28,452 bases of DNA from a virus, in the IMG/VR virus record IMGVR_UViG_3300006033_000793, positions 1 through 28,452 of that record. One strand, 5' to 3'. Made by a program: the position numbers and the translations under genes. The notes beneath the pieces were generated by a model that was not told the origin of the DNA, made no database searches, and saw only the letters and a list, made by a program, of their open reading frames with translations. Of the stretch, positions 1,108-24,954 are shown piece after piece (position 1 is the stretch's first letter; each line of letters opens with the position of its first letter).

Positions 1108-1116
1108 GGGTTCCTC

Positions 1117-1263
1117 TTAAAATAGCGTTACTTCATCGGGTGAGACAGGCCGCACCAGGTCCACCGCTCCTACTCCCGGAAGAAGCCAGCGTGTGGTGCC
1201 GCGCTGGCTTACCTGTTTCCGCCATTTAAGGCACGCTGATACAGGCGAACGCCAATCCGCCAT
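1117..1263 (-). CDS. Small overlapping ORF between MuF and gpG genes (hypothetical, 48 aa)
   Basis: ATG at 1263 opens a 48-residue frame that overlaps the last 17 codons of the MuF-like gene in another frame and stops at 1117-1119, just before the ribosome site of the gpG-like gene. It begins MADWRSPVSACLKWRKQ and ends in VGAVDLVRPVSPDEVTLF, which looks like a genuine protein tail rather than random translation. An AAGTGAAG stretch upstream could serve for ribosome binding. I do not recognise a family. It fills the otherwise empty 100-base gap between two tightly packed head genes, which is the main argument for it. The alternative is that this frame extends the MuF protein through frameshifting, or is spurious. 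Confidence 0.4.
   Translation of the reverse strand: MADWRSPVSACLKWRKQVSQRGTTRWLLPGVGAVDLVRPVSPDEVTLF
1183..1210. other. Inverted repeat at the end of the MuF gene
   Basis: AAGCCAGCG at 1183-1191 pairs perfectly with CGCTGGCTT at 1202-1210 around a 10-base loop. The right arm overlaps the stop codon of the MuF gene (1209-1211). On the minus strand it would form a 9-bp RNA hairpin between the F- and G-like genes, without a following U-tract. It may trim or attenuate the message. Confidence 0.45.
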
Positions 1264-2468: not shown

Positions 2469-4053
2469 CCGCTTCCTGCAGCACCTCGTAGCGCCCGGCC
2501 AGGTGCGCCACGCTCAGGGCCTGCGCCATGGCATCGGCATACTGGCTCAGGGTCATGTCGGGCAGCAGCTCGCTCAGACCGTCCCGAATTTCGTCCAACG
2601 ACTGCGCGCGCATCACCAGCGCACGCAACTGCTCAATCCACTGGTCCACCGCAGGCGCCATGGTGTTTGACATCTGGCCCGACATGGCCACAGGCACCGA
2701 CTGCGCGGCCATGGGCACGGCCGTGGCCCAAGCCACGCCAGGCGGGCGCTGAGACGACAGCGCCGCCACAACAGGCGCCCGGCTAGCGCTCTGCAGCACC
2801 GCCTGGTTGGGCTGCGGCATGGGAATACCCAGCTTCTCGTGCGCCCATTGCACTGTGGGTGCCATGCCAATGCTCACCAGCTTGGGCAGCGCATCGGCGT
2901 AAGTCTGCAAATCCTCCGGCTCCTGGGCGTTCAGCCGGAACTTGGCCGCACGGCGCAAGCCATCAGGCGCCAGGCCATTGATGGCGGCGATGGCGTACAC
3001 CACATCGCGGCTCATCGTCGAATTGAGCTGGCGCACATCGCCATCGCGCAAATCTTTGCGCACCTCGTTGTGGACATTGCCCAGTGCATTCGTGCTGCTT
3101 TTGCCGTCGGCGCCGCTGGTGAGCGTGCCGCCCAGAATCACCTTGCTCTGGTTGCGTTCGCACCAGGACATCATGAGCTCAAACGCCTTGGGGTCGCCCG
3201 TGGCCGCGTTGTGAAACTCAATCAGCATGCCCTCGGGCACGATGCCCGCCGCGTTGTGCCCCACGCCCACCAAGGCGCGCAGCAGCGTGGTCTTTTCCTT
3301 CTCACTGGCAGACGGCGGGTATTTGCCCACCCGCAACGGAATCCCGTAGATCTCCAGAAATTCAGCCAGGTCGCCCACCGCGTAGTTCTTGAACAGATAC
3401 GTCCACACCAGCTGGCGAAACAGCGACGAGCGCTCGATATAGCCCGACTTGGCCTTATGAACATGCGTGATCCAGCCGAACGGACGCAGCGGCTCACCCA
3501 TGAGGCCATCCACCACCGTGTTTGTGCGCAAACGCAACTCTTGGCGGTAGCTGCGTTGCACGGTAAACCACGACTGTGGGCGGTGCGTGATCGTTTTGGG
3601 CAGCCAAAACCCCTCCACCCGGTGCCATTCGATTTCTTGGCAGGCAAAGCCCTTGCCAATGGCGTCGGTGCTGTCGAACACCATGTCTTCCAGGTCGGGC
3701 ACCTCCGTCATCAGCTCCTGCAGCTGCTCCGCATCGCGTTTCTCCGCCGCGCTCGCGTTCACAGGTGGCACGATTTCCCAGTCCAGCACACAGGCGCGGC
3801 GACGCTTGCCCATTTCAGCGGCAATGTGCCCGTCCTTTTCCTCCATGTCTTCGAACAGCTCGGACTGCGACGTGATGTCGCCCGCTTCGGCCAGGTCCAA
3901 AATGCGCGCCAGCTTCGACGGCGTGAGGCCGCGCGTGGGGTGGCTCTGCACCTCACCCTGCAAGTGCAGCAGACGCGACGTTTGCGGCTCGTCGGCCAGG
4001 TCGGGCATTGCCATGGGTTGGCCATCGGGGCCCAGAATCATTGATGTGGCCAT
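2452..4053 (-). CDS. Phage portal protein (Mu gp29-like, DUF935)
   Basis: A 533-residue protein with the hallmarks of the Mu gp29/DUF935 portal family. This protein forms the ring at the head vertex through which DNA enters and leaves. The N-terminus holds TRGLTPSKLARILDLAEAGD, followed by DMEEKDGHIAAEMGKRRRACVLDWEI, a portal wing pattern. The middle has ITHRPQSWFTV, RSSLFRQLVWTYLFKNYAVGD and FLEIYGIPLRVGKY, and later EFHNAATGDPKAFELMMSWCERNQSKVILGGTLTS-type sequence. The Ala/Met-rich C-terminal third (from about 440) is variable in the family. The length is typical. It lies between large terminase and MuF, the order of Mu genes 28-29-30, and is separated from terminase by 46 bases. ATG at 4053 is preceded by GGAAG. 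Confidence 0.93.
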   Translation of the reverse strand: MATSMILGPDGQPMAMPDLADEPQTSRLLHLQGEVQSHPTRGLTPSKLARILDLAEAGDITSQSELFEDMEEKDGHIAAEMGKRRRACVLDWEIVPPVNASAAEKRDAEQLQELMTEVPDLEDMVFDSTDAIGKGFACQEIEWHRVEGFWLPKTITHRPQSWFTVQRSYRQELRLRTNTVVDGLMGEPLRPFGWITHVHKAKSGYIERSSLFRQLVWTYLFKNYAVGDLAEFLEIYGIPLRVGKYPPSASEKEKTTLLRALVGVGHNAAGIVPEGMLIEFHNAATGDPKAFELMMSWCERNQSKVILGGTLTSGADGKSSTNALGNVHNEVRKDLRDGDVRQLNSTMSRDVVYAIAAINGLAPDGLRRAAKFRLNAQEPEDLQTYADALPKLVSIGMAPTVQWAHEKLGIPMPQPNQAVLQSASRAPVVAALSSQRPPGVAWATAVPMAAQSVPVAMSGQMSNTMAPAVDQWIEQLRALVMRAQSLDEIRDGLSELLPDMTLSQYADAMAQALSVAHLAGRYEVLQEAGGLGG

Positions 4054-4099
4054 AGGGCTTCCAGAAAATTGGGGAACTTGAAAAGCTTGAACGCCTGGA

Positions 4100-5497
4100 C
4101 TACCAGGCGCCGTGCTCTATCAGCGGCAACGGCGAGTCATCGTCGTCGTCACGGCCATCGACCACGTTGTCAAAACCGCGCGGGGTGGTGGGCGCTGGCG
4201 TGTACTCAAACACCATGAGCCCGCCCGCTGCCGCCTGCTGCGCCAGAAAACACGCCCAAGTGCGGTCGGCGTGGCCCGTGCTGTCACTGTCGGCCACAAA
4301 ACGCGGTGTGCCCGTGGCACCCGTCACCTTCTTGAGCTTGTGAAGGTCGGCACGCAAATCGTTTCTCCCCTCGGGAATGCGCACGCGCCGGTCCTCAAAA
4401 CCCTCCTTGCCCCGTGTGGCCATCTCCAACTTCGTGGCCACATTGAACAAAACACCCTGCACCCGGCTGCTGCCATGGCGGCGCTGTGCGTCCTGCACCG
4501 GCTTCTCGCCCATGCCCGTCTGGTCCATGCAACAGCGCGTCACGTTGTAGCGGGAAAACACCTCGTCCAGCAGCATGTCCTGCTCGGCAAACAACACACG
4601 GCGGCGCTCAATGATCTCCCGCGTCCACAGCACATCACCCACCCGCTCAAACACCCAAATCACAAACAAGTCATGGCGCGCCGCAATGTCCACCCCCACG
4701 AAACAAGGGCCACCCTGGTAATGCTCAGGCCGCCCAGCCGCCTCATGCTCACAAGCCGTGATCAACTCAAAAGACAGCCACGCGCTCGCCTCATCCAGCC
4801 ACTTCAGCTCGAACTCCTGCGCCCACAAATCGTCATCGCCAGCGCCCCGGCGCAACTCCTCAATGTCACGCGGCAAGCCATCGGCCACCGCCTTGTAAAT
4901 ATCCGTCGTGTGGCGGCTCCAGCCGTCGCCGTGGCCCGTCATCAGGTCATAGAACTTATTGCCCTTGCCATTGGGCGTGCTGATCACCCGCAGCTTCAGG
5001 CCCGGCTTGGAAATCACCGGAAAAAGCGCCTTCCAGATCGCCCGACTGTCCTGGTGAAACGCAAACTCATCGAGCAACACATTCGCGCTGAAGCCGCGCG
5101 CCGTATCCGGGTTGGCGGGCAAAGCCGTGATCTTGCTGCCACCGGGCAACTCCACCTCCAACGCCTTGATGCCCGGCTCCCACTCATAGTCATAGGCCTT
5201 GAAGCCCGCCGCCAGCGCCGCCAAATGCAGCTTCACTCCCTCATTCATCGCCTCGCGCGCCTGGCGCTCGCCCCGGCTCAAAATCACCCAGCGCCGCCGC
5301 TGCCCCAGCGCTTCGGCGCGCGCGCAATCCAGCGCCAGCTCCAGCGTGCTCGTGAACGTCTTGCCACACTGCCGGGCAAACATCGCAATCTTGAACCGCG
5401 CCTCGTCAGCCACCCAGCGCTGCTGGTAGGGGTACAAGGGCAAGGCCGGGCGTGTCACCATGTTCATCGCCATCTCAAGCCGCCGGGGCAATGCCAT
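4100..5497 (-). CDS. Large terminase subunit (Mu gp28-like)
   Basis: A 465-residue packaging motor and nuclease. It cuts and pumps DNA into proheads; in Mu-like phages it cuts headful-fashion from integrated copies. The ATPase has a Walker-A-like ARQCGKT at 41-47, Walker B VLLDEF at 140-145 and a coupling-type STPNGKGN at 173-180. The nuclease half shows candidate metal-binding acidic residues D270 (in FVGVDIA), D325 (in CCMDQTGMG) and D411 (near GHADRTWA), arranged as in RNase H-fold terminase nucleases. The C-terminus ends in an acidic run (DGRDDDDDS). ATG at 5497 overlaps the gp27-like gene by 23 bases; an in-frame ATG at 5473, just after that gene's stop, is a reasonable alternative start. 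Confidence 0.93.
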   Translation of the reverse strand: MALPRRLEMAMNMVTRPALPLYPYQQRWVADEARFKIAMFARQCGKTFTSTLELALDCARAEALGQRRRWVILSRGERQAREAMNEGVKLHLAALAAGFKAYDYEWEPGIKALEVELPGGSKITALPANPDTARGFSANVLLDEFAFHQDSRAIWKALFPVISKPGLKLRVISTPNGKGNKFYDLMTGHGDGWSRHTTDIYKAVADGLPRDIEELRRGAGDDDLWAQEFELKWLDEASAWLSFELITACEHEAAGRPEHYQGGPCFVGVDIAARHDLFVIWVFERVGDVLWTREIIERRRVLFAEQDMLLDEVFSRYNVTRCCMDQTGMGEKPVQDAQRRHGSSRVQGVLFNVATKLEMATRGKEGFEDRRVRIPEGRNDLRADLHKLKKVTGATGTPRFVADSDSTGHADRTWACFLAQQAAAGGLMVFEYTPAPTTPRGFDNVVDGRDDDDDSPLPLIEHGAW

Positions 5498-6029
5498 AGG
5501 CCGCCTGAATCACAGCGGCCAGCATCGCCGGGTCCAGCTGGCCCGAGCGCCCCAGCTCGTCAAAACGGGAACGTTGCTCCTCCAGCAGCTTCTTGCGGGC
5601 TTTCTCCTCAATCGCCGCCCGCGCCTCCAGGCTGAACTTCTTGTGCGAAGCCGATGCCTTGCCAATTTCCGCCGCATTCTTGAACAGCTTGTTGACATCC
5701 ACGTCTTCGGCGTCAACGTCCGTCTCCATCAGTAAAGTCAAAATCTTTTGCTGGGTCACCCGAATCACCGCAGCGCCCAGCTTGTCCTGGTCGTCCGGCG
5801 TTGCATCCACCAGCGCACGCGCCTGCTCAGCGGCTATTTTGGACAGCGCCATCGCCCGTTCAAACGGACTGCCATAGCGCTGCAGGCCAGAAGCCGAAAT
5901 ATCCGCCCCGCGCGCCTTCAGGTCGGCTGCCAGCTGCGCGTAGTCAGAAAACCCGCGCTTGATCAGCTCAGCGTCCAGCCATGCCTTGAGCTCGGGGGGC
6001 AGCGTCAACACCTTGTTGCGTCTTGGCAT
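5475..6029 (-). CDS. Mu gp27-like packaging protein (DUF3486), probable small-terminase role
   Basis: A 184-residue protein of the DUF3486 family (Mu gp27). It begins MPRRNKVLTLPPELKAWLDA, the family's usual opening, followed by a helix-turn-helix-like stretch ELIKRGFSDYAQLAADLKARG and SASGLQRYGSPFE. Members are thought to recognise phage DNA for packaging, by analogy with small terminases; that role is inferred from gene order. The frame is open to 6101 but I place the start at ATG 6029, four bases after the preceding gene's stop, because family similarity begins there. The C-terminal half is helical and charged (RAAIEEKARKKLLEEQRSRF). It is followed directly by the large terminase. Confidence 0.85.
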   Translation of the reverse strand: MPRRNKVLTLPPELKAWLDAELIKRGFSDYAQLAADLKARGADISASGLQRYGSPFERAMALSKIAAEQARALVDATPDDQDKLGAAVIRVTQQKILTLLMETDVDAEDVDVNKLFKNAAEIGKASASHKKFSLEARAAIEEKARKKLLEEQRSRFDELGRSGQLDPAMLAAVIQAAYGIAPAA

Positions 6030-6033
6030 CGCA

Positions 6034-6354
6034 TCAGCCCTGCGTGATGCGGGGCCGGGCCACGCCAGGCTGCGCGTCAATCGTGTATTCGGCAAAGTCA
6101 ATGCCTGTGCGCGTCAGCTCCACAAACCAGTTGTCCAGCGGGTCCTTGGCAATGGTGACCATCTCCCGCGACTCCAAGTAATCCAGCTCACGCCGAACCT
6201 CCTGAAGCGTGGCATCGGGATACACCGACTGGATCACCGGCAGCATCGCCACCACATTGATGCCATTGGGCCGAGACAAGTTGGCCAAGTCCAGCAAATG
6301 CCAGCGAATCGCCTCGCGTCGGGCCTTCAAAATAGCGGGTTGGTGCATCGTCAC
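6034..6354 (-). CDS. Mu gp26-like phage protein (winged-helix-like)
   Basis: A 106-residue protein at the position of Mu gp26, between a gp25/DUF2730-like and a gp27/DUF3486-like gene. It contains AIRWHLLDLANLSRPNGIN, PVIQSVYPDATLQEVRRELDYLESREMVTI and LTRTGIDFAEYT. This has the pattern of a small winged helix: a helical bundle, then a recognition-like helix and a beta wing. I know no established biochemical role; involvement in packaging is inferred from context. It overlaps the upstream gene by four bases (ATGA). Confidence 0.75.
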   Translation of the reverse strand: MTMHQPAILKARREAIRWHLLDLANLSRPNGINVVAMLPVIQSVYPDATLQEVRRELDYLESREMVTIAKDPLDNWFVELTRTGIDFAEYTIDAQPGVARPRITQG

Positions 6355-6713
6355 AGGGAGCCTCCATTGCGCGTGTTGTCGCGCGTGCTGTCCAGCGCCC
6401 GCTCCATGCGCAGCGCAAAATTGTCAATCCGGGTGCTGATGCCGCCAATGGCTTGCACGAAGTCGTCTCGGCGCACGTAGTGCAACGGCATATCGGCCTT
6501 CATCAGCAGCAACTCGCGCTCGGCACGCTGCCAGTTCGTGGCCTCGTCCTGGTTGGCTTTTTCAATCTTTTCAAGCCTGTGGTTCTGCGCGGCAAAACCC
6601 GCTTCAATTTGCTTGATCTGCGCACTCATGACCAGCTTGGACATCGTAAAAAAACCGCTGATCAAAATCACGATCAGCGAAATCACATGCCACAGCTCCA
6701 GTTGAATCGTCAT
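6351..6713 (-). CDS. Mu gp25-like membrane-anchored coiled-coil protein (DUF2730)
   Basis: A 120-residue protein with one N-terminal transmembrane helix (about residues 8-27, WHVISLIVILISGFFTMSKL) followed by a long amphipathic helical region that is likely coiled coil (QIKQIEAGFAAQNHRLEKIE onward). This is the plan of DUF2730 proteins found just before the packaging genes of Mu-like phages. Function is not established. It overlaps the zinc-finger gene upstream by four bases and the gp26-like gene downstream by four, which implies coupled translation. Confidence 0.75.
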   Translation of the reverse strand: MTIQLELWHVISLIVILISGFFTMSKLVMSAQIKQIEAGFAAQNHRLEKIEKANQDEATNWQRAERELLLMKADMPLHYVRRDDFVQAIGGISTRIDNFALRMERALDSTRDNTRNGGSL

Positions 6714-6943
6714 AGCCTTCCCCGCCCTTTCATCTCATGCCGCGCCTGGCATGCAACGCAATACAAACAACCCGGAACCGCCACACGGCGGGCCAACGGA
6801 ATCCCATCGCCACAACTCTCGCACCACTCGGCAGAGTCAGCGGCCGTTTTGCCGGCCAGCCCGGCGCGTCGCGCCTGTTGGTACAGGGCTTCGGCCAGCA
6901 GCTCGCCCTCGCGCTCGCTGGCGCGGTCTACGTCATCGGTCAT
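6710..6943 (-). CDS. DksA/TraR-family C4 zinc-finger protein
   Basis: A 77-residue protein starting MTDDVDRASEREGELL with the C4 zinc finger CESC...CLYCVAC (spacing C-x2-C-x14-C-x2-C) and the DksA-type stretch CGDGIPLARRVAVPG. Phage TraR-like proteins bind the RNA polymerase secondary channel and mimic DksA plus ppGpp, altering host transcription; whether this one does is inferred. The frame extends upstream to 6970, which would add nine residues, but ATG 6943 gives the normal TraR N-terminus and overlaps the Rz-like gene by only 11 bases. It sits between the spanins and the packaging genes, where many Mu-like phages carry the same protein. Confidence 0.85.
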   Translation of the reverse strand: MTDDVDRASEREGELLAEALYQQARRAGLAGKTAADSAEWCESCGDGIPLARRVAVPGCLYCVACQARHEMKGRGRL

Positions 6944-7484
6944 GCGCGGGCTCCGCTGTGTGCCAGCCAATCAGAGCGGAAAGTCGGGCGCGGCAGATTT
7001 CATGCTCAGCTCGGGCGGTAGCGGCCCAATGCCCGACATCGGCATCTGTGGCAAAGGCCCCACCGGCTGCAGCAGCGCCGCCGGGGGTTTCGGGCACTGG
7101 CTCAAGTCCAGTGGGGGCGGTGTCGGAGGGCTGGTTGAGCACGCGCACAGCAGCACTGCTGAGGCAAGCGCGGCCAGTCGTGAGGCGGGCAAGTGCATGG
7201 CGATTTTCCGTTGAGAGTTGGTCAATCTGCGCCTGGCGCTGGGCCAGGTCATCGGTCAGCGCGTTGCCACGCTCTTGCGCCTGCTGCAAGAGGCGTGCAG
7301 CGGCTTGCGCTTGCAGGCGGTCTGTCTCGGCATGGGTGGTGCGCAGTTCGGCCATGTCAGCCCGCGCGCTGCTCAACTGCACCTGCAGCGGTGCCCGCGC
7401 AAAGTAGGCGCCAGCCGCCGCACCGGTGGCCAACACCACCAAGGCCAGCAGCCAGCCAGGCAATATCCGTATTGAGCTGCTCAC
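6933..7484 (-). CDS. Inner-membrane spanin subunit (Rz-like)
   Basis: A 183-residue protein with an N-terminal transmembrane helix (ILPGWLLALVVLATGAAAGA) and a long Gln/Ala/Arg-rich helical region (residues about 35-110) of coiled-coil character, as in i-spanins that bridge the inner membrane to an outer-membrane lipoprotein during the last step of lysis. I place the start at GTG 7484 because it overlaps the transglycosylase stop in a GTGA junction; the open frame runs further upstream to 7592 but that part lies inside the transglycosylase gene. The Pro/Ala-rich C-terminal third corresponds to the zone where Rz1 is encoded in another frame. Confidence 0.8.
   Translation of the reverse strand: MSSSIRILPGWLLALVVLATGAAAGAYFARAPLQVQLSSARADMAELRTTHAETDRLQAQAAARLLQQAQERGNALTDDLAQRQAQIDQLSTENRHALARLTTGRACLSSAAVRVLNQPSDTAPTGLEPVPETPGGAAAAGGAFATDADVGHWAATARAEHEICRARLSALIGWHTAEPAHDR
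6971..7198 (-). CDS. Outer-membrane spanin lipoprotein (Rz1-like), embedded in the Rz gene
   Basis: A 75-residue protein read in a different frame wholly inside the Rz-like gene. It starts MHLPASRLAALASAVLLCAC with a signal sequence and lipobox (LCAC, Cys at about residue 20), followed by a very proline-rich mature part (STSPPTPPPLDLSQCPKPPA). This is the classic Rz1 layout: short lipoprotein, Pro-rich, nested in the Rz frame. The frame is open to 7252, but ATG 7198 gives a proper lipoprotein signal. Together with the Rz-like product it should complete outer-membrane disruption after the transglycosylase has acted. Confidence 0.85.
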   Translation of the reverse strand: MHLPASRLAALASAVLLCACSTSPPTPPPLDLSQCPKPPAALLQPVGPLPQMPMSGIGPLPPELSMKSAAPDFPL

Positions 7485-8200
7485 AGCACACGCCCCCAAG
7501 CGGCGTAGCGCGGCTGCAGCACATTTAAGATGCGCAGGGGGTAACCCAGGTTCTCGGCGCAATGCGTGCGGTGGCGGCGGGCCTGGCCACACGCAGCGTC
7601 CACCTGGGCCAGCGTGGGCTGGGCCAGCCCGGTACTGGCGGCCTCCGCTCTCCAGTGGCCCAGCCCGCCGTTGTAAGCCCGCAGCGCCACATGCAAGCGC
7701 TCGCGTTCGGTGTACCTGGTGGGGGTGAGGTCAAACAAGTATTTGTCGTAACCCACCAGCGCACGCAACGCCCAGGTCGGGTTTTTGGGCTGGCAATCGG
7801 CAGCGCTCAGTTTGTGCAAGCTGCACCACCAGGTGGCCGTGCCCGGCATGAACTGAGCCATGCCCTGCGCCCCCACGCGGCTCACCGCGTCGGAGCGCCA
7901 TCCGCTTTCTTGGTGCACCTGCGCGGCCAGTGCCGAGATGGGCGCATCAAGGCCCCACTGTGTGTGGGCAGCGCGAACCAGCTCGGCGCGGTATTTGTGG
8001 GCAGCGGCGGGCACCTGGGCGTGGGCAACAGGGAAAAAACCGCCAAACGACAAAAGCGTGACTGCCACGACCACATCAAGGCTGTACATCCAAACGTTGT
8101 ATTGGCCTTTCGGCTGGCCATGTCTGGCCAGGTGGATGCCCAGGTTTAGCAACACAAGGCAAATCCAGATCGCTTGCGGCCATCCAAGTTGAAGTTGCAT
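7481..8200 (-). CDS. Phage lytic transglycosylase (endolysin) with N-terminal membrane segment
   Basis: A 239-residue protein with an SLT-type lytic transglycosylase domain at about 65-235. The likely catalytic Glu is E98 in QVHQESGWRSDAVS, followed by GAQGMAQFMPGTA and the family's AYNGG at 175-179. The first 56 residues (LGWPQAIWICLVLLNLGIHL, then ARHGQPK...YN) match my memory of a separate two-helix phage membrane protein of about 70 residues that often sits in lysis cassettes; here it is continuous with the enzyme. The second hydrophobic segment ends in PVAHA-Q, a good signal-peptidase site. An internal ATG at 8089 would give an enzyme with an ordinary signal peptide. It lies three bases after the holin and overlaps Rz by four. 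Confidence 0.9.
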   Translation of the reverse strand: MQLQLGWPQAIWICLVLLNLGIHLARHGQPKGQYNVWMYSLDVVVAVTLLSFGGFFPVAHAQVPAAAHKYRAELVRAAHTQWGLDAPISALAAQVHQESGWRSDAVSRVGAQGMAQFMPGTATWWCSLHKLSAADCQPKNPTWALRALVGYDKYLFDLTPTRYTERERLHVALRAYNGGLGHWRAEAASTGLAQPTLAQVDAACGQARRHRTHCAENLGYPLRILNVLQPRYAAWGRVL

Positions 8201-8203
8201 GGC

Positions 8204-8587
8204 TCAGGCCCCCAAGCCCATGGCCAACATGGCGCAGCCCACAATGACCGCCCGGCGCAGCATGGCGAGGCCAAACACCAGGGATGGCTCGGGCATGGCC
8301 TCCAGCGTGTAGGTGTTTGTCGGGGAATCATCGGACTGCAGGTCGGGCAGCATGTCGCTGCACAAAAACTTGTCCGGCCGGGCGTAGGGAAACAGCGAGC
8401 GGTCCAGCCAGTAACCTACCACGGCTGCCAGCGCCACCAGGCTGAGCTTGTACAGGCTCAGCGGCAGCTGCTGCGGCGCCAGCGCCCACACAGCCACCAG
8501 CAGCGCCAGCGTGATGAGCGCCCACCCCCAGAGGCGTGGGGTGCGTTGGTTGAAGGTGAGCTTGGTGGGGCGGTTCAGTGTCTGCAT
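8204..8587 (-). CDS. Putative phage holin
   Basis: A 127-residue membrane protein opening the lysis cassette. It shows two adjacent N-terminal transmembrane helices (WGWALITLALLVAVWAL and LYKLSLVALAAVVGYWL) and a third near the C-terminus (AVIVGCAMLAMGLGA), with a polar middle (SDDSPTNTYTLEAMPE). The N-terminal part, ending LDRSLFPYARPD, is the signature of the putative holins of Mu-like phages of Burkholderia and Pseudomonas. Its role would be to form membrane lesions that time lysis. It is directly followed by the transglycosylase. It could instead be an accessory antiholin; the position as first lysis gene favours holin. Confidence 0.8.
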   Translation of the reverse strand: MQTLNRPTKLTFNQRTPRLWGWALITLALLVAVWALAPQQLPLSLYKLSLVALAAVVGYWLDRSLFPYARPDKFLCSDMLPDLQSDDSPTNTYTLEAMPEPSLVFGLAMLRRAVIVGCAMLAMGLGA

Positions 8588-8650: not shown

Positions 8651-9859
8651 CTACGGAGAGCCAGAGAACAACCCACGCAAAAACAGCCAAGCAGGCTCTG
8701 TCATGGCCAGATAAAGTGCAGCTGCAGCAAGAAAACCAGTAACAAGAATGCATTGCACCGTCCAAAAAGCTAAACGCTGCAATTTCAGTCTGGATTCCAG
8801 CTTGGGAAAGGTTCCAGAAACCATATCCCTGATCACAGCGTACTCACTCAGTACCTTTGTTTTTTTTCGTTTGATCTCGGCTTCAAGTGCTGCCAAGGTA
8901 TGCAGCTGGTTGCGCATTACAAAATTGGCCAACACGACAAACACCAATACACCAAGCAATATCGCCGTGTTGACCCATGCTTCCTGCCGCCAGACGGCAG
9001 TCACTTTGAACTGGGTAGCGACCAGCACCGTAGCCACAGGAATACCCAGAATTTGCCCTTGCACATCTGCAAATGTTTTGTTGATGCGAGCCAATTCGTC
9101 CAGCATGTCAGCCTCCAACTGACTGCGCACTTTTTCATAGGAAAAGCTGGCCACATACAAGCGCCGTCCGTCGTCAAAGTCCTTGGCCACATCAGATAAA
9201 TGGCTCAGAAGCGATGCAAAGCGACGCGAAGGCTCCAAGCCGCCAACATGCTTGACCACGGCATCGGCCAAGATGGGCAGCAACTGTTCGTGCAGTTTGT
9301 CGCTCCCATCAAATTGACCCAGCATGGACTGAAGGGCAGGCATATTCAGACTGTCCAAGTCGGTGGTGGTGTATCGGACAGGTAGACTGACCTTGCCAGA
9401 TTTCAAAAACACCAGCTCTTCCGTGTCCTTGTCAAAGTAAGCTGCTGCCTTGGCCAGCAACGACACCAGTTCAATGACCTGCTTGTACCGAGTAAACACG
9501 GCATGGGAATTCAACTCGTCATCAGCATGAGCCAACCCATGCTCAAGCCAAAAAAAACGTGGCACCGTTGATCGGCCTCGTGGAAACTGAAGCACATCGT
9601 CGAACTTGTCTGCGAGCAAGCCTAGGCCCGTAGCCGGGTCGACCAGCTCCACCTCGACCGATGTACCCAAGGCAATACCAGCGCTCACATCCTGGCGCAG
9701 GACAATGCCGTACCGTCTCTCGTCGTTACGCACCATGTTGAATACGTCAACCAGTTCGGCCGTGTCCAGCGTCAACACACCCGTGCGGCCACTCCCGCCG
9801 CACAACTGCGTTTGGCGGTAGAGAGGCACAAGCAGGGTGTCAAACTTCGTCGGCTTCAT
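8651..9859 (-). CDS. Cargo: membrane protein with large N-terminal soluble domain, unknown function
   Basis: A 402-residue protein I do not recognise. Residues 1 to about 265 are soluble and mixed alpha/beta (FDTLLVPLYRQTQLCGGSGR at the start; WLEHGLAHADDELNSHAVFTRYKQVIELVSLL later). Three hydrophobic helices follow: about 269-286, 296-315 (VNTAILLGVLVFVVLANFVM) and 364-386 (AFWTVQCILVTGFLAAAALY), with a basic helical stretch KRKKTKVLSEYAVIRDM between the last two. The start is ATG 9859, which overlaps the NdpA-like gene by 20 bases; the frame allows a TTG start at 9880. The coding overlap suggests the two proteins are made together. Base composition is lower in GC (about 53% in one hand-counted 60-base line) than the phage genes (about 67% in another), so it looks acquired. 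A sensor or effector role at the membrane, as in exclusion or abortive systems, is a guess. Confidence 0.75.
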   Translation of the reverse strand: MKPTKFDTLLVPLYRQTQLCGGSGRTGVLTLDTAELVDVFNMVRNDERRYGIVLRQDVSAGIALGTSVEVELVDPATGLGLLADKFDDVLQFPRGRSTVPRFFWLEHGLAHADDELNSHAVFTRYKQVIELVSLLAKAAAYFDKDTEELVFLKSGKVSLPVRYTTTDLDSLNMPALQSMLGQFDGSDKLHEQLLPILADAVVKHVGGLEPSRRFASLLSHLSDVAKDFDDGRRLYVASFSYEKVRSQLEADMLDELARINKTFADVQGQILGIPVATVLVATQFKVTAVWRQEAWVNTAILLGVLVFVVLANFVMRNQLHTLAALEAEIKRKKTKVLSEYAVIRDMVSGTFPKLESRLKLQRLAFWTVQCILVTGFLAAAALYLAMTEPAWLFLRGLFSGSP

Positions 9860-10868
9860 CTGTCTGGTAGTCACGCTCAAGGTCGTCTCGCAAAGACTGC
9901 GGTAGGTTACTCAAAGTCAACGTGCCGTCTTCGCGGTTGAACAAAATCTCTCGGTTGCGCAATGCTTTGCGGTCAAAAGTCAGTTTCCAGTATTCTGCCT
10001 TTCCCTCAAACTTGACCAAAGCTTTCAGTGCGCGCTGATCTGGAACGAAACCGTCTGTGATTGCGTTGGCCGGATCAGCCATGACTGTTTTCAGCGCAAC
10101 GGGATCATCTGGCCAAACATGGTTGCTGAACGCCTCAAGCTCAACAGGCCGTTTGCCCTTGGACAAGGCCGTCAAGTAGGTATAGGCCAGGTCAAACAAG
10201 TGGTCTCGCTGATCGGGAGCAAGTGCTTGCTGATCTGCAAATGACTCCAATGCTACGACCAGTTTCTTTGACTCAGCAAGAGGAACATGAATGTCATTGC
10301 ATCCCAAGAACAGCCTGAAATAGCTTGATACGTCAGACCGGCCCTTCAGAAAACTGATGTACCGGTCACCACCTGACTGCCATGCAGTCAAATCGATTCG
10401 ACCAGCAACACGCATGTGGCTCATGTCCAAATACTGGCTCTCAATCACGTCCAGACCATTGGTGATGGCCACCCCAGCTACTTCGGTCACGATGGCGCAC
10501 AGCAGATAGTGATTGCCATCGGCTGTGATTTTTGCGAACAGTACGAATCCGCCAGTTGCAAACTGCTCCGCGCTGGCCCGAGTTTGCAAATGGCGCATCA
10601 GGTTGGCCGATAGCTCCAAAAAGTCGACACCGCCCTCTGCAAGGTGGTTTCGAAGGTGACCCTGCACGGGATATTCGTTTTCATCCGCCTCAAACCGACC
10701 AAAGCCTTTGCCAACCTGTTCGCTGTACTGCTTGTAAATAAGGTCAATGAGCCTCTGAACCTGGTTGTTGATCGGTAGTAGCTGTGGCCGTAGTTCAAGC
10801 GTGGCGATGCGTTGGCCTGATTCTTTGATGAGTTTGTGAACAACCGCATGGGTGATTTCGTTTGGCAT
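9840..10868 (-). CDS. Cargo: nucleoid-associated protein of the YejK/NdpA family
   Basis: A 342-residue protein matching the 37-kDa nucleoid-associated protein family (E. coli YejK/NdpA, about 335 residues). It begins with ITHAVVHKLIKE, contains an RLIDLIYKQYSE helix, a GGFVLFAKI strand motif at about 106-114, and the family's ISFLKGRSDVSSYFRLFLGC at about 171-190. The C-terminal half has KALVKFEGKAEYWKLTFDRK followed by an acidic tail. YejK coats nucleoid DNA and has been linked to topoisomerases; family members also turn up in mobile elements. ATG 10868 has an ideal ribosome site (TAAGGAGG five bases upstream), far stronger than its neighbours'. The product may silence or mark DNA, or sense incoming DNA for the membrane partner encoded next to it; those roles are inferred. 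Confidence 0.8.
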   Translation of the reverse strand: MPNEITHAVVHKLIKESGQRIATLELRPQLLPINNQVQRLIDLIYKQYSEQVGKGFGRFEADENEYPVQGHLRNHLAEGGVDFLELSANLMRHLQTRASAEQFATGGFVLFAKITADGNHYLLCAIVTEVAGVAITNGLDVIESQYLDMSHMRVAGRIDLTAWQSGGDRYISFLKGRSDVSSYFRLFLGCNDIHVPLAESKKLVVALESFADQQALAPDQRDHLFDLAYTYLTALSKGKRPVELEAFSNHVWPDDPVALKTVMADPANAITDGFVPDQRALKALVKFEGKAEYWKLTFDRKALRNREILFNREDGTLTLSNLPQSLRDDLERDYQTDEADEV

Positions 10869-10950
10869 TTTTCCTCCTTAAAAATCTGTTCGATCGCTTG
10901 CGATCCTTGAGCCGTGCAACGGAACGCGGGGTGTTGGCTTCAGGTGACCT
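10869..10950. promoter_or_regulatory. Intergenic region ahead of the NdpA-like gene, with palindrome
   Basis: The 82-base gap carries the strong ribosome site of the NdpA-like gene (CCTCCTTA on the plus strand, 10873-10880) and a palindrome, GATCGC at 10892-10897 and GCGATC at 10900-10905 with two bases between. Such a tight palindrome suits a protein-binding site more than an RNA hairpin. It is the only sizeable gap inside the cargo block, so the NdpA/membrane pair may have its own promoter here. I could not identify the promoter elements. Confidence 0.35.
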
Positions 10951-11763
10951 TCAAGGAAATGGTGCCTGGACAGGAAGTCCGCCTTGGCTTTCAACCTCAG
11001 CCATCAGCGCCTTGTATTTGCGCATCGCGGCCCATGAGTCCAGCTTCTTGCGGAACTGGTTACGCTTGTACGCGACGTATGATTTTTCTCCACCCGAGTA
11101 ACGCCCCTTGGGCAAGCGGCCCGCAATGCTTTCTTCAAGCAAGTGGGCCGTTTTGCGAAGCACTGCCGCTGCATCGGTTACACGACCGCCTGCCAGCAAC
11201 AGCTTGACCCACTCATACACCCGACCGGTGTGAATCATCGAATCCACTTCGTTGGAAAAGTACGCAAGTTCGTCAGCAGGGGCTTGCATATCACCCCGGG
11301 CTACCCGCAATTCGAAGTACCGCTCTGCGTACCGGACTTCATCTGGATCACCCGCCAGCGCCTGTTGAAAGCCTGTGATCGCTGTGTCAACGTCACCCCT
11401 TTCCATGGCCAAGCTGGCCAGGCAGAAATCACGGTAGTGGCTCGGGTGCGAGACAAATTCGTCAAACGGAACCCCTGCACGCACGTAGTCCAGCATTGGA
11501 AAGAAGTGGTCCACCACCCGCTTTCCGGTTGAAAGCGCCTCTTGTTCCTGCGCAACCGTTCGCCACATGCGACGAAACTCGTACAGATTTTCGCCTCCGG
11601 TCTGTTCTACCAAACCTGTTTTGCTCATGGCTACTTGAAACCCCAAGGCCTGCCATTGATCCAGCGGTCGAACCCGCGCGTAGTGAGCCAAGTACGGGCG
11701 GTGGCGGGTATCTGTCAAGGCATATTTAAAGTTGGGTGACAAGAGCAACATAGTCATGCTCAT
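10951..11763 (-). CDS. Cargo: soluble protein with possible TPR-like stretch, unknown function
   Basis: A 270-residue protein starting MSMTMLLLSPNFKYALTDTR. The open frame continues upstream to 11973, but that part runs through the preceding membrane-protein gene. ATG 11763 shares one base with that gene's stop (TGATG), so I take it as the start. Residues about 133-175 (FCLASLAMERGDVDTAITGF, then QQALAGDPDE and YAERYFELRVARGD) have the helix-turn-helix rhythm and Ala/Gly/Pro positions of a tetratricopeptide repeat. A second, similar helical stretch follows at about 190-225 (YEWVKLLLAGGRVTDAAAVL). The C-terminus is basic and helical (YKRNQFRKKLDSWAAMRKYK). No catalytic motif is visible. TPR-like proteins usually mediate protein contacts, so it may be an adaptor for the cargo system. 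Confidence 0.65.
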   Translation of the reverse strand: MSMTMLLLSPNFKYALTDTRHRPYLAHYARVRPLDQWQALGFQVAMSKTGLVEQTGGENLYEFRRMWRTVAQEQEALSTGKRVVDHFFPMLDYVRAGVPFDEFVSHPSHYRDFCLASLAMERGDVDTAITGFQQALAGDPDEVRYAERYFELRVARGDMQAPADELAYFSNEVDSMIHTGRVYEWVKLLLAGGRVTDAAAVLRKTAHLLEESIAGRLPKGRYSGGEKSYVAYKRNQFRKKLDSWAAMRKYKALMAEVESQGGLPVQAPFP

Positions 11764-12101
11764 CAGGCAGCACGCTGCTGTTTGGTCATACGAACCGGCT
11801 TCAACACCCCCCACTCCAGCAGCGCCAGGCTCAGCACCAACTGCGTGGTGAGCAGCACCAGGGGCGTAGACCATTGGTTGGTGGTGGTGTGAGCCACAGC
11901 GAACTGCACCAGCCACCAGGCGCTCCAGATGGCTGACGGCACCAGCACCGCCACAAACAGCCAGTGGCTCCACTGCAGCCGCTGTAAGGGTGGGCGCCTG
12001 GGCGCGCGCCAGATGACGTTGATCACAAAGGTGACGGGTGCGTTGTTGGTGATCTGATTGGCAATCTGGCCCGTGACATGGCCAATTTCCGGTTTTTCCA
12101 T
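11763..12101 (-). CDS. Cargo: small two-helix membrane protein
   Basis: A 112-residue protein with an N-terminal polar motif, IGHVTGQIANQITNN, a basic stretch (WRAPRRPPLQRLQ), then two transmembrane helices (LFVAVLVPSAIWSAWWLVQF and LVLLTTQLVLSLALLEWGVL) and a basic C-terminus (RMTKQQRAA), giving a cytoplasmic N- and C-terminus by the positive-inside rule. It lies directly downstream of the repressor and one base ahead of the TPR-like gene. The Gly/Asn/Gln motif resembles the C-terminal motif of the adjacent repressor. Small membrane proteins beside phage repressors often act in superinfection exclusion; that is inference from position. I do not recognise a named family. Confidence 0.7.
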   Translation of the reverse strand: MEKPEIGHVTGQIANQITNNAPVTFVINVIWRAPRRPPLQRLQWSHWLFVAVLVPSAIWSAWWLVQFAVAHTTTNQWSTPLVLLTTQLVLSLALLEWGVLKPVRMTKQQRAA

Positions 12102-12159: not shown

Positions 12160-12774
12160 CTATTTGCGTGGTGTTGATGTCACGCCGAAATGGCTGGTGA
12201 AGTGCAGTTCCTTTTCGTTCGTCTGGTTACCCTGCACCACCTGGCCATGCACCGTGTTGATACCAAGCGGTGGTGGGGTGGATGCCCGCCCCGCCAGATG
12301 CCTTGTCTCAATTTCCTCGGCACGCTCAGCACGGTGCAGCTTCACCACCAGCTGCAGGGCCAGTCGAAGGGTGTCGTCTGAGCAGGCGGCCAGCACGTCC
12401 TTGATGGCTTCATAGGTGCCCGCACGGCTGGCGTTGCCAGCGGCCATCGTGGTGCCTGCGGCGTCCAGCAGGCTGCGCAGTCTTTCTTTTTCTGCGGGTG
12501 TGGTGTTCAGCGCCTGCGTGAAGGCCTGCGCCCGCTCTTGCGCCTGGCGCTGGTGCGCCGTGAGCGTGCCACCGGTGAGCACGTACTCCACATCAATGCC
12601 CAGCTCGGGGCGCTGCTGGGCTAGGGCGCGGAGTTCCCGGTCTGGGAAAGACCCGCGTTTCTTCCTCTCGCTGAACGCTGTTTTCGAGAGCCCCAGTGCG
12701 GCGGCGACCTCTTGATCCTTGCTGACGCGCAAAAAAGGCTTGAGTCTGTCCAGGCAATCTGAAAATAAGTTCAC
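12160..12774 (-). CDS. Phage immunity repressor with CI-type helix-turn-helix
   Basis: A 204-residue protein with a CI repressor helix-turn-helix domain at about 5-68: DQEVAAALGLSKTAFSERKKR, RELRALAQQRPELGIDVEYVLTG. The long helical region that follows (about 75-165) probably mediates oligomerisation, and the C-terminus carries INTVHGQVVQGNQTN. No S24 peptidase motif is present, so induction by RecA-type self-cleavage is not expected. The start is GTG at 12774 with AAGGGG seven bases upstream. It is divergent from the early operon across an 82-base control region, the standard position of the lysogeny repressor. The plus-strand gene at 13713 encodes a paralogue of its DNA-binding domain. Confidence 0.85.
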   Translation of the reverse strand: MNLFSDCLDRLKPFLRVSKDQEVAAALGLSKTAFSERKKRGSFPDRELRALAQQRPELGIDVEYVLTGGTLTAHQRQAQERAQAFTQALNTTPAEKERLRSLLDAAGTTMAAGNASRAGTYEAIKDVLAACSDDTLRLALQLVVKLHRAERAEEIETRHLAGRASTPPPLGINTVHGQVVQGNQTNEKELHFTSHFGVTSTPRK

Positions 12775-15413: not shown

Positions 15414-15844
15414 GCGCCGACAAAATGCCGACCGAAATCGAGGCGGTTTCCAACAATCTTCAGGATGTGGCCCAGGGCTTGGCCTGCGACATCGCTGCCT
15501 TTCCCGGTGACGTGGCGGCCATTTGCGGATGGAGGCTTGACCCCGAGGAAACCGAGGCATTGCGCCAACTCGCTTGGAAGCTCGGACACAAGGCTCGGCT
15601 GCTGGAATTTGGACTTGAGCGTATCCACGGGCTGTGCGCGTCGTTGGCGGATGAGGATAGAACCCTGTTTGCTAAGACCATGCAGCTGGTTGATATGTGC
15701 CGTTTTGCCCGGGCAACTCCAGACAACGGACCGGCGCCGGAACCAACCACCACAGCTTTGGCGGATGCGTTGGAAGCGGCTGTTGCTGATGTGCAGGATG
15801 CACTGCGGCAGCGATTCCCTGGCGAAGAATTTCCAGGGGCCTGA
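15410..15844 (+). CDS. Hypothetical early protein upstream of transposase
   Basis: A 144-residue acidic, mostly helical protein that I do not recognise. It contains DPEETEALRQLAWKLGHKAR, then ERIHGLCASLADEDRTLFAK, and a Pro/Thr/Ala-rich hinge (PDNGPAPEPTTTALADAL) before a final helix. It is coupled to the DUF3102 gene by a four-base overlap and ends four bases ahead of the transposase start, so it is part of the transposition operon. Its codon use and composition are like the neighbours'. Confidence 0.65.
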   Translation: MSADKMPTEIEAVSNNLQDVAQGLACDIAAFPGDVAAICGWRLDPEETEALRQLAWKLGHKARLLEFGLERIHGLCASLADEDRTLFAKTMQLVDMCRFARATPDNGPAPEPTTTALADALEAAVADVQDALRQRFPGEEFPGA

Positions 15845-15848
15845 CACC

Positions 15849-17663
15849 ATGCCGCCCACCATGCCCTTTGACCAGCTCCAAGAGTTGGTGGCCTTGCGCG
15901 ATGCACTGCTGAGCGCCCCACCCAAGGGCGGCGAGCGCACGCGGTTGATCAAGGCCTTTGCGCAAGACAAACACCAGTCCACCAGCACGGTGTACCGCTG
16001 GCTGAAGGAACATGCCGGGTTTGAGACCGGGCGCAAGCGCCGCACGGACTCGGGCACCTCGCGGCTGCCGGTGCAGTCGCTCGAATTCATTGCAGCGTCT
16101 TTGCAGCAGAGCGTGCGGCGCAACGGCATCAGCACCAAACCCATTTGCGTGGCCATGAACATTGCCAGTCAGAACGGTTTGGTTATCAACGTGTCTGAGA
16201 GCCGCATAGGCTCGCTGCTGCGGGCGCAGCGCATGGACGTAAAAACCCAGGCCACCGCCCGCAACCACCAGCGCCTGCGCAGCGAACACCCCAACCATGT
16301 GCACCAGATAGACCCCTCGTTGTGCTTGGTGTATTACCTGGGCGGGCGCCAGGTGATCATGACCGAAAAGGAGTTCAACAAGAACAAGCCGGTGGCGCTG
16401 GAGAAGGTGAAGCTCAAGGTGTGGCGCTATGTGCGTTACGACCACGCTTCGCGCAGCATTGATGTCCGCTACTACGAGTCTGCCGGTGAGAACCAGCGCA
16501 ACTTGTTTGAGTTTCTGCTGCACACCTGGGGCAGGCAAGCCCAGCGGCTGAGCCACGGCGTGCCGCGCATGCTGTTGTGGGACAAGGGCAGCGAGTTCAC
16601 CAGCCCGGGCGTGCGCCGCTTGCTGGAAGCGCTGGGGGTGGTGTACGAGGCCCACGCCACGCACCACGCCTGGGTCAAGGGCGGCGTGGAAAACGCCAAC
16701 TGGATTGTTGAGCGCCACTTTGAGAGCCGCCTGCGCGACGAACCGGTGGAGACGGCGGAACAGCTCAACGCCAGCTCTGCGGCCTGGGTGCGCGACCACA
16801 ACGCCAACGCGATCAAGCATGTGGACGCCCGCACCCTGTGCGACGACGGGCAGCTGCGCGTGCGCGATGACCTGTGGAACCTGATTGCCCACTACCCCGG
16901 CGCTCTGGTGGAGATGCCAGACCGGGAAACCTGCGCCTACTTCATGCGGGGCAAAGAAGAGACGCGGGTGATCAAAGACTCGCGCATCACCTTTGTGCAC
17001 CCGCAGACGAAGAAGAGCGAGCTGTATTTGTTGGAGCCGTGGGCGGGTTCGTTTGCCAACGGCCAAAAAGTGGTGGTCAGCCCGCTGCTGCTGGGCGATG
17101 CCACGGTGCGCGTGACGCTGGAGAACCACGGCAAAGATGCGCAGCATGTGGACGTGGCACCGCAGCGCGAGTTCGATGCCTTTGGCCGCCCCATGTCGGC
17201 CACGCTGATTGGCTCTGAGCGGCGCACCGCCCCGCACAACGCGGCGCAAGAAGCGGGCAAGCGCATTGCAGCGGCCACCTACGGGCCGGGCACTTCGCTG
17301 GACGAGGCCGAGAAGTTGAAGACGAAGAACGCCCGCCCGTTCATGCACCTGAACGATGGCAAGGGTGTGGTGGCGCACACGCACCTGGGCCAGGGCGAGC
17401 TGCCTACGCGCTTGCTGCCCGAGGCGGTGCCCATCAAAACCGCTGAGCTGCAAGCCCTGCGCACCCAGCACGCGGACGCGATGCTGAACCACTTTGAGGC
17501 GGTTCGCGCGTTGATGGGTTTGGGTGTGGCCATGTCGCCCGGGTTGCTGGCCACGCTCAAAAACCTGCACCCCGATGCGGTGCCAGAAAGCGCTTTGCCC
17601 GAGCTGGCCGCCCGCCTCACGGTGCGCGCTGGCCTGCGTGTGGTCAACGGTGGTGCGCTGTGA
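15849..17663 (+). CDS. Mu-type transposase (MuA-like DDE recombinase)
   Basis: A 604-residue transposase that would cut and join the phage ends for integration and replicative transposition. The N-terminal part has a helix-turn-helix (QSTSTVYRWLKEHAGFETGR). The catalytic core shows the acidic triad D155 (VHQIDPS), D245 (LLWDKGSEF) and E281 (KGGVENAN), with 35 residues between the second Asp and the Glu, a textbook D,D(35)E spacing. A C-terminal beta-barrel-like region follows (about 340-470), then a helical tail that in Mu contacts MuB and ClpX. The frame is open from 15465, but ATG 15849 is the first start after the previous gene ends. The next gene begins in its stop (GTGA). Confidence 0.95.
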   Translation: MPPTMPFDQLQELVALRDALLSAPPKGGERTRLIKAFAQDKHQSTSTVYRWLKEHAGFETGRKRRTDSGTSRLPVQSLEFIAASLQQSVRRNGISTKPICVAMNIASQNGLVINVSESRIGSLLRAQRMDVKTQATARNHQRLRSEHPNHVHQIDPSLCLVYYLGGRQVIMTEKEFNKNKPVALEKVKLKVWRYVRYDHASRSIDVRYYESAGENQRNLFEFLLHTWGRQAQRLSHGVPRMLLWDKGSEFTSPGVRRLLEALGVVYEAHATHHAWVKGGVENANWIVERHFESRLRDEPVETAEQLNASSAAWVRDHNANAIKHVDARTLCDDGQLRVRDDLWNLIAHYPGALVEMPDRETCAYFMRGKEETRVIKDSRITFVHPQTKKSELYLLEPWAGSFANGQKVVVSPLLLGDATVRVTLENHGKDAQHVDVAPQREFDAFGRPMSATLIGSERRTAPHNAAQEAGKRIAAATYGPGTSLDEAEKLKTKNARPFMHLNDGKGVVAHTHLGQGELPTRLLPEAVPIKTAELQALRTQHADAMLNHFEAVRALMGLGVAMSPGLLATLKNLHPDAVPESALPELAARLTVRAGLRVVNGGAL

Positions 17664-23242: not shown

Positions 23243-23293
23243 CTTTAAGGGCTTTCAGCGGCCCAAAATGCCGCCCACCGCGACAGTGTGGGC
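23243..23293 (+). promoter_or_regulatory. Expected late promoter region upstream of protease gene
   Basis: A fresh promoter is required between the terminator and the protease gene, and Mor-type activation is expected here. The 50 bases contain GGGCTTTCAGCGGCCC, an imperfect dyad, but no recognisable -35 box, which is normal for Mor/C-dependent promoters. The assignment rests on position. Confidence 0.35.
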
Positions 23294-24475: not shown

Positions 24476-24510
24476 GCCAACACACCCACCACCCCACAAC
24501 GGACCAGCCC

Positions 24511-24921: not shown

Positions 24922-24954
24922 CCACCCCACCCACCATCACAAGAAGAGCGAACC

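What the first reader, a model, noticed from the sequence alone, without database searches (positions are those of the whole stretch)
8651..12101. Four-gene lower-GC cargo block between repressor and holin: candidate undescribed exclusion or defence system
Four tightly packed minus-strand genes (two-helix membrane protein, protein with possible TPR-like repeats, NdpA/YejK-like protein, three-helix membrane protein) have no obvious role in the phage cycle. Two pairs overlap (TGATG at 11761-11765; 20 bases at 9840-9859), which suggests co-translation. A hand count of one 60-base line in the block gives about 53% GC against about 67% in the transposase gene. Genes beside a phage repressor are often expressed in the lysogen and protect it from other phages. 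A nucleoid-associated protein coupled to a membrane protein suggests recognition of DNA linked to a membrane effector. I know of no named system with this composition.
Basis: partly seen in the sequence, partly recalled or inferred. Interest (0 to 1): 0.8.

Follow-up and report, generated by a model that had tools for sequence, protein, structure and literature searches.

The report
Phage-borne DS-1-like defence gene pair
Two of the four cargo genes of this Mu-like phage, a DNA-binding-type protein and an overlapping membrane protein, form a widespread, tightly linked gene pair distantly related to the recently tested bacterial anti-phage system DS-1, while the other two genes are separate passengers that sit beside the phage repressor.

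Summary
In detail: four minus-strand genes, both overlaps, 54.0% GC against 63.6% in the rest. They are not one system. The core is a pair: an NdpA/YejK-like protein (9840-10868) and a membrane protein (8651-9859). The same pair, in the same order, lies in 114 of 120 related loci from phages, plasmids and genomes, and the two proteins co-vary (Mantel r 0.90). Both match, far below cut-off, the NCBIfam models named after DS-1, one of 42 units validated against phages in E. coli (Science 2026). Profile comparison links the membrane proteins (97.5%). No window-type NdpA has the cysteine-rich N-terminus of the two DS-1 loci examined, so I call it a sister family. In seven loci of other Mu-like phages the pair fills the same slot; a phage with a similar backbone holds the candidate system PDC-M53AB there. 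The TPR and two-helix proteins do not travel with the pair; the TPR protein recurs beside other phage repressors. Best reading: superinfection defence made in the lysogen, DNA-binding sensor plus membrane effector, working like RexAB or Kiwa. Defence rests on homology and context, mechanism on inference; nothing was tested at the bench.

The parts
8651..9859 (-). Membrane partner (402 aa): soluble N-terminal domain, long helix 221-270, hydrophobic segments near 271-287, 292-319 and 363-388; distant relative of DS1_2
   Evidence: NF053869 50.7 bits, E 1.4e-13, cut-off 315; phrog_5023 E 2.1e-66; hhalign of its family to two DS-1 membrane proteins 97.5%, E 6.9e-12; model pLDDT 89.9
9840..10868 (-). 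NdpA/YejK-like (NA37) protein, 342 aa, without cysteine-rich N-terminus; distant relative of DS1_1
   Evidence: PF04245 E 2.1e-72; NF053868 54.8 bits, E 7.2e-15, cut-off 330; PDB 9be2 YejK E 5.8e-68 with family profile A3
10869..10950 (-). 82-base gap upstream of the pair: AGGAGG at 10878-10873 before the NdpA start, and a short palindrome GATCGCAAGCGATC at 10892-10905 of unknown meaning
   Evidence: sequence read directly
10951..11763 (-). TPR-type protein, 270 aa; repressor-linked accessory gene, not part of the conserved pair
   Evidence: PF13428 24.1 bits over cut-off 23.5; model pLDDT 80.4 from 4 rows, TPR folds; homologues 53-57% behind repressors in L129/L130 and L131/L132; 0 homologues in the 120 pair loci
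11763..12101 (-). Two-helix membrane protein, 112 aa, with backbone-like composition; no relative found
   Evidence: only CopD at E 0.035 under cut-off in Pfam, none in PADLOC, PHROGs, NCBIfam; 0 of 120 loci; 0 of 399 genomes, no positive control; GC3 80%
12160..12774 (-). CI-like phage repressor upstream of the block on the same strand
   Evidence: PF07022 E 3.7e-7
8204..8587 (-). Holin, first lysis gene downstream of the block
   Evidence: PF13272 E 1e-32; phrog_1528
7481..8200 (-). Transglycosylase-type endolysin
   Evidence: PF01464 E 1.3e-10; phrog_669

Best explanation
Genes 3 and 4 are a two-gene anti-phage (superinfection-exclusion) module of the DS-1 superfamily, carried as cargo by a Mu-like phage and read with the repressor in the lysogen. 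Inferred mechanism: the NdpA-like protein binds DNA and senses or engages foreign or replicating phage DNA; through the soluble N-terminal domain of its partner it acts on the membrane protein, whose most conserved part (the juxtamembrane helix and first hydrophobic segment, 239-290) opens or damages the inner membrane and stops the infected cell from making phage. Shown here: homology, pairing, order, co-variation, slot, composition. Inferred: expression in the lysogen, DNA sensing, complex formation, membrane action. Genes 1 and 2 are repressor-linked accessories, not required parts of the pair.
For: Each protein matches its own DS-1 model; DS numbers denote units that reduced plaquing, 42 of 94 (PMC13092281). 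Membrane families aligned by hhalign over 217 columns, 97.5%, E 6.9e-12. NdpA just upstream on the same strand in 114 of 120 other loci; ORFs overlap in 100 of 106 complete pairs (longest-ORF starts, so an upper bound). Mantel r 0.904, reached by 0 of 9999 permutations, 82 dereplicated pairs. In 200 genomes of one family the 4 strong NdpA matches all have the partner (one of them, G001, was the centre chosen because it has the pair); 0 of the 30 best-scoring enterobacterial YejK loci do. Same slot in 7 of 110 loci, with modules that do not track the phage backbone. The L013 pair (membrane partner 76% identical) lies in a stretch with PDC-S13, a Fic protein and a helicase. Conservation peaks at 239-290 (3.1 bits against 1.6-2.1 in residues 1-220).
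Against: Both NCBIfam scores are about one sixth of the cut-off, so function is carried over a long distance. No PADLOC model matches any of the four. The two loci over the DS-1 cut-off have a cysteine-rich N-terminus on the NdpA-type protein; 0 of 106 pairs here do. Three Cupriavidus loci hold a shortened membrane protein without NdpA. No promoter-like site or other evidence of co-transcription with the repressor was found. Only 7 of 110 loci show the repressor-to-lysis slot. The neighbour scan has no control set. In the NdpA tree three paired rows (L006, L010, L011) fall outside the main paired set. No bench data.
Confidence: 0.6

Rival explanations
1. Kiwa-like mode: the membrane protein anchors the NdpA-like protein at the inner membrane so that it coats incoming phage DNA and blocks replication and transcription, without membrane damage.
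For: Kiwa couples a membrane protein with a DNA-binding partner that blocks replication and late transcription (PMC12904381, one passage read). The membrane model has a large soluble part that could dock a partner.
Against: No Kiwa model among the PADLOC matches. The strongest conservation lies in the juxtamembrane/first hydrophobic segment rather than in the soluble domain, which favours an active membrane role.
Confidence: 0.25
2. A phage self-regulatory pair: the NdpA-like protein tunes the phage's own transposition or the lysis-lysogeny decision, and the membrane protein is a lysis-timing accessory next to the holin.
For: Lies between repressor and holin; lambda RexA biases the lambda switch (PMC11077077, abstract start in the listing and passages). 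NdpA without this partner is common in phages: 67 phage records match NdpA, 6 match the partner.
Against: The pair also occurs on plasmids and in genome loci without Mu-like genes, and in three positions in Mu-like phages; five records of the nearest relatives by transposase that cover the slot lack it, and so do the TPR-bearing relatives L129-L132.
Confidence: 0.1
3. The four genes act together as one operon-encoded system.
For: Tight spacing and one strand; the TPR protein sits upstream of another two-gene candidate defence cassette in L129/L130.
Against: 0 of 120 pair loci show genes 1 or 2; the TPR gene of L131 has no cassette before the holin; gene 1 has backbone composition.
Confidence: 0.05

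Closest known systems
DS-1 (DefensePredictor system; NCBIfam NF053868 + NF053869)
   Same: NA37/YejK-type protein followed by a membrane protein on one strand; homologous membrane partner over 217 columns
   Different: The two loci over the cut-off (L143, L144) have a cysteine-rich N-terminus on the first protein; the window pair scores far under both cut-offs and its NdpA falls in a separate set of the tree
RexAB, lambda and Pseudomonas putida prophage P1
   Same: Prophage two-gene pair: DNA-binding protein plus membrane effector; in P. putida the effector damages the membrane (PMC12894663, abstract and passages)
   Different: No Rex family among the Pfam, PHROG or NCBIfam matches; RexB of P. 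putida has four predicted TM segments, here two clear and one short
Kiwa (KwaA/KwaB)
   Same: Two components, one in the membrane, one binding DNA (PMC12904381, one passage)
   Different: No PADLOC match
Chromosomal YejK/NdpA
   Same: Same NA37 family; solved structure 9be2
   Different: No membrane partner in 30 of 30 enterobacterial loci; separate set in the tree; NF001557 score 210.3 under cut-off 341
PDC-M53AB (PADLOC candidate)
   Same: Occupies the same repressor-to-lysis slot, behind a homologue of the TPR gene, in L129/L130
   Different: The window proteins match no PADLOC model, the L129 proteins do

Membership tests
DS-1 (NF053868/NF053869) | First protein over the NF053868 cut-off (330 bits) | tested here: not met
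   54.8 bits
DS-1 (NF053868/NF053869) | Second protein over the NF053869 cut-off (315 bits) | tested here: not met
   50.7 bits
DS-1 (NF053868/NF053869) | NdpA-type gene directly upstream of the membrane gene, one strand | tested here: met
   window and 114 of 120 other loci; the two loci over the NF053869 cut-off, L143 and L144, show the same order
DS-1 (NF053868/NF053869) | Cysteine-rich (zinc-ribbon-like) N-terminus on the NdpA-type protein | tested here: not met
   present in L143, L144; 0 of 106 pairs incl. the window. The paper's legend lists ZF among its abbreviations; that ZF belongs to DS-1, and that it defines DS-1, is my inference
DS-1 superfamily (broad) | Homology of both partners at profile level | tested here: met
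   NdpA profile A3 also finds the L143/L144 NA37 proteins at 108.8 and 86.9 bits
DS-1 superfamily (broad) | Anti-phage activity | not testable with these tools
   bench experiment needed
RexAB | Sequence homology to RexA/RexB | tested here: inconclusive
   no Rex family listed at E up to 1; the published P. putida Rex relative was found by HHpred and fold, and the fold of the NdpA-like protein was not compared with RexA
RexAB | DNA-binding protein and membrane protein, linked to the repressor | tested here: inconclusive
   gene layout fits; DNA binding and co-transcription not shown
Kiwa | Match to KwaA and KwaB models | tested here: not met
   no PADLOC family at E up to 10 for any of the four proteins; that PADLOC 2023 holds Kwa models is recalled
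YejK equivalog (NF001557/PRK00378) | Score over 341 bits | tested here: not met
   210.3 bits
NA37 (PF04245) | Score over the gathering threshold | tested here: met
   244.7 against 24.6 bits

The most novel reading that the evidence does not exclude
The repressor-linked TPR protein is a shared regulator or adaptor onto which unrelated two-gene effector pairs (a DS-1-like pair here, PDC-M53AB in L129/L130) are plugged, making this a modular prophage immunity cassette; and the DNA-binder-plus-membrane pair is a further independent solution of the RexAB/Kiwa kind.
Probability: 0.15. Interest if true: 0.7.

Novelty: new variant of a known kind. Interest (0 to 1): 0.5.

Why it matters
DS-1 was shown to protect E. 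coli, but the sections and legends I read give no mechanism for it, and PADLOC 2023 has no model that matches these proteins. This work finds a broader branch without the cysteine-rich N-terminus, 82 distinct pairs in the loci examined, nearly all in Pseudomonadota by record title where a title is given; a near-strict pairing that marks the membrane protein as the partner of this NdpA clade; a recurrent slot in Mu-like phages; and conserved residues to test. It also gives a reason to ask what solo NdpA genes in phages and chromosomal YejK do.

Tried and rejected
Single-sequence scans of viral contigs with P0003 and P0004 found no relative; the profile scans did. P0004 in plasmids and phages by tblastn: none at E 0.01. 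P0001 in 399 family genomes: none, without a positive control. A search of 399 genomes of the order with the TPR profile gave 5 matches, four near the threshold and one at 3.4e-19 (L133); only L133 was looked at, and its short context says little. Fold search of the membrane protein: no PDB or BFVD match at E up to 0.001; VIA-align best row MukF Z 8.8, within the level the tool calls usual for long helices, so I draw nothing from it. CopD as a match of gene 1 (E 0.035, under cut-off) and SLATT for the holin were rejected. Promoter scan: 0 found; terminator-like sites 7 against 5.5 expected. In literature searches on NA37/NdpA/YejK and defence (lists capped, e.g. 20 of 903) the DS-1 paper was the only listed one I recognised as describing a YejK-type defence; this does not show that no other exists. 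Chromosomal YejK falls between paired lineages in the unrooted tree, with weak support (84/80, 85/62) and long branches; I make no claim on that.

The neighbour scan used 101 of 131 listed neighbour ORFs of at least 150 aa (30 not given, mainly near copies and short ones). Matches at E up to 1e-20 among the first 25 of 96 families include HamA/HamB, PtuA, HEC-05, type I and II methyltransferases, mad2 and AriA. There is no control set, so it is description only. The tree used 45 of 48 dereplicated paired NdpA rows. Of 12 plasmid and phage records that match gene 4, ten were fetched (H45 and H52 were not). My first count of pairs was 113 of 120; one search showed that L049 also has the NdpA gene, missed because its longest-ORF start overlaps by over 150 bases, hence 114.
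Full report
Setting. The window is a virus record of 28,452 bases. It carries the transposase-type gene A and its neighbour B (15465-18703, plus strand), a CI-like repressor (12160-12774, minus), a late-activator match (22695-23180), and lysis and terminase genes. The labels A, B, portal, F and protease are mine, from the translations and from Mu-like relatives. The four genes of the finding lie between repressor and holin on the repressor's strand.

Observation. Coordinates and both overlaps are right. The block has 54.0% GC against 63.6% in the rest; the lowest of 362 same-length windows outside has 61.5%. Third-position GC separates gene 1 (80%; eight backbone genes have 72-88%) from genes 2-4 (57-62%).

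Family matches. Gene 3 is an NA37 protein (PF04245, 244.7 bits). NCBIfam gives NF053868 DS1_1_antiphage for gene 3 (54.8 bits, E 7.2e-15) and NF053869 DS1_2_antiphage for gene 4 (50.7 bits, E 1.4e-13), both far under their cut-offs. PADLOC has no match for any of the four. DS numbers come from the DefensePredictor paper (PMC13092281; I read sections 5, 7 and 15 and passages): 42 of 94 cloned units gave anti-phage protection, and a YejK domain is listed among newly validated defence domains. That DS-1 is the YejK unit, and that it has two genes, rests on the NCBIfam names together with that text; the parts I saw do not describe DS-1's mechanism.

The pair. Tblastn of gene 4 finds 6 of 50,697 phage records and 6 of 72,556 plasmid records. 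I fetched five of each. In all five phage loci and four of the five plasmid loci an NdpA gene lies directly upstream; the fifth, Cupriavidus, has a shortened gene 4 alone. A profile of the family then gave 80 genome loci and 30 viral loci (82 genome candidates were confirmed, 80 kept). Over L002-L121, 114 of 120 loci have the NdpA gene just upstream on the same strand. Of the other six, three begin at a contig edge (L057, L084, L117) and three are the shortened Cupriavidus form (L009, L042, L044). In 106 complete pairs, the window included, the ORFs overlap in 100; starts are the first possible start codons, so this is an upper bound. After removal of near copies, 82 pairs give a Mantel correlation of 0.904 between the two distance matrices, reached by 0 of 9999 permutations, highest permuted value 0.19. 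In 200 genomes of the family of G001, 12 have an NA37 match. The 4 strong ones (194.7 bits and more) all have the partner, the 8 weak ones (64.3 bits and less) do not. This is not a free sample: G001 is the genome of L012 and was the centre. Of the 30 best-scoring enterobacterial YejK loci none has the partner.

Link to DS-1. Among 295 genomes of the family of G795, 9 match NF053869, 2 over the cut-off. Those two, L143 and L144, encode an NA37-type protein with a cysteine-rich N-terminus, then the membrane protein. Hhalign of the window family (A6, 50 rows) with the two DS-1 membrane proteins (A9) gives 97.5%, E 6.9e-12, 217 columns at 18% identity, through the juxtamembrane helix and first hydrophobic segment. 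No pair of the window type has the cysteines (0 of 106). In the NdpA tree (45 of 48 dereplicated paired rows, 10 YejK, 5 DS-1-like, 2 DS-1, 3 weak), 42 paired rows with the window form one set (94/87; 41 of them 97/91), apart from YejK (100/100), DS-1 proper (100/97) and DS-1-like (100/98). Three paired rows (L006 with L010, and L011) fall outside; the tree is unrooted and has long branches. I therefore call the window pair a sister family, not DS-1.

Genes 1 and 2. Neither has a homologue (phmmer E up to 1, ORFs of 50 aa and more) in the DNA held for the 120 loci, including the two closest, L012 (82% in gene 4) and L013 (76%). Some loci end close upstream of the pair, so the absence is not equally informative everywhere. 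A homologue of gene 2 (57%) was found in 1 of 399 genomes of the family. Its locus L129 is a Mu-like prophage (A 39%, B 47%, endolysin 72%, portal 82%) with repressor, TPR gene, PDC-M53A (E 2.9e-34), PDC-M53B (E 1.5e-51), holin and endolysin in this order. A profile of the two TPR proteins finds three viral loci: L130 with the same genes as L129, and L131 and L132, which look like one phage, with the TPR gene between repressor and holin. So gene 2 is a repressor-linked accessory seen with two different cassettes and with none. No relative of gene 1 was found.

The slot. In 7 of 110 loci (L012, L093, L101, L102, L103, L116, L120; L101 to L103 are close to each other) the pair lies in the same place: transposase leftward, then the pair rightward, then lysis or terminase genes. 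A cro-like match lies between in 5 of 7. A repressor lies before the pair by BLAST in L093, L103, L116 and L120, by Pfam HTH in L012, by eye in L101; L102 was not examined for it. In L085 and L088 the pair lies between terminase and portal, in L119 after the F-like gene. The modules do not follow the backbones: L120 has a portal 69% identical to the window's but NdpA 25%; L116 terminase 70%, NdpA 30%; L012 terminase 33%, but gene 4 82%. The six nearest records found by transposase, L123-L128 (61-81%), show no match to genes 1-4, by ORF or in six frames. L125 and L126 look like one phage, and L128 does not cover the slot. I also read the slot ORFs of L123, L124, L125 and L127 by eye. The slot thus exchanges cargo. 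P. aeruginosa Mu-like phages are known for such plastic, partly low-GC regions (PMC4378225, abstract and passages), and the beetrevirus Fc02 has an exclusion gene apparently in the repressor transcript (PMC9936078, abstract).

Defence context. L013, a Limnohabitans MAG contig, has PDC-S13 (E 7.6e-131), a histone-deacetylase-type gene, a Fic protein (SoFic E 8.8e-15), the pair, and a helicase (MkoA E 1.7e-93, part of the model). Among 101 scanned neighbour ORFs of genome loci, matches at 1e-20 include HamA, HamB, PtuA, type I methyltransferases, mad2 and AriA; Pfam gives integrases, TniQ and conjugation genes. No control was run, so I do not claim enrichment.

Structure and mechanism. Gene 4 folds confidently (pLDDT 89.9, 50 rows): an alpha/beta part to about residue 220, a 50-residue helix, then hydrophobic segments with a helical insert between the last two. 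No PDB or BFVD match reaches E 0.001. Information content is 1.6-2.1 bits in residues 1-220, 3.1 in 239-290, 2.6 in 291-318 and 1.9-2.1 in 319-386. A variable soluble part with a highly conserved membrane-proximal part suggests a partner-facing end and a conserved effector end; this is inference. The closest tested parallel that I found is the RexAB-type pair of a P. putida prophage: a DNA-binding protein and a membrane effector that causes membrane damage (PMC12894663, abstract and passages). Kiwa offers the other mode, in which the DNA-binding part blocks phage DNA and does not cleave it (PMC12904381, one passage). I prefer the RexAB-like mode; sequence does not settle the choice. DNA binding by YejK itself is recalled, not tested, and the NdpA-like protein was not folded.

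Verdict. The unit is two genes, not four, and a distant relative is already known and tested.

Noticed in passing
L156, L161, L162 (also L157): Divergent NA37 proteins of the same bacterial family (37-54 bits) are followed by an ORF of about 327-343 aa with a start like MKEAELLARWRAEKPLYEAW, unlike the membrane partner; possibly another NA37 two-gene pair.
   Followed up: no
L129:9404-12190, L130:7599-10385: A Mu-like prophage with a backbone close to the window's carries the PADLOC candidate system PDC-M53AB in the same slot, behind a TPR homologue.
   Followed up: partly
window 547-8587 and 23288-25845: The late genes are split: lysis, terminase, portal and F-like genes run leftward from the repressor, protease and capsid genes run rightward after the late activator. 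In L085 these genes lie on one strand in one run; in L128 the lysis genes follow the late activator.
   Followed up: no
L009, L042, L044: Cupriavidus loci hold a shortened membrane partner (about 209 aa, 49% identical) without NdpA beside it, perhaps a remnant.
   Followed up: partly
window 10892-10905: Palindrome GATCGCAAGCGATC in the gap before the NdpA gene.
   Followed up: no
window 12160-12774 C-terminus, 11763-12101 N-terminus, L012:4561-4911, L123:6457-7327: Repressors and small repressor-adjacent proteins of these phages seem to share a short glycine- and asparagine-rich stretch (by eye only).
   Followed up: no
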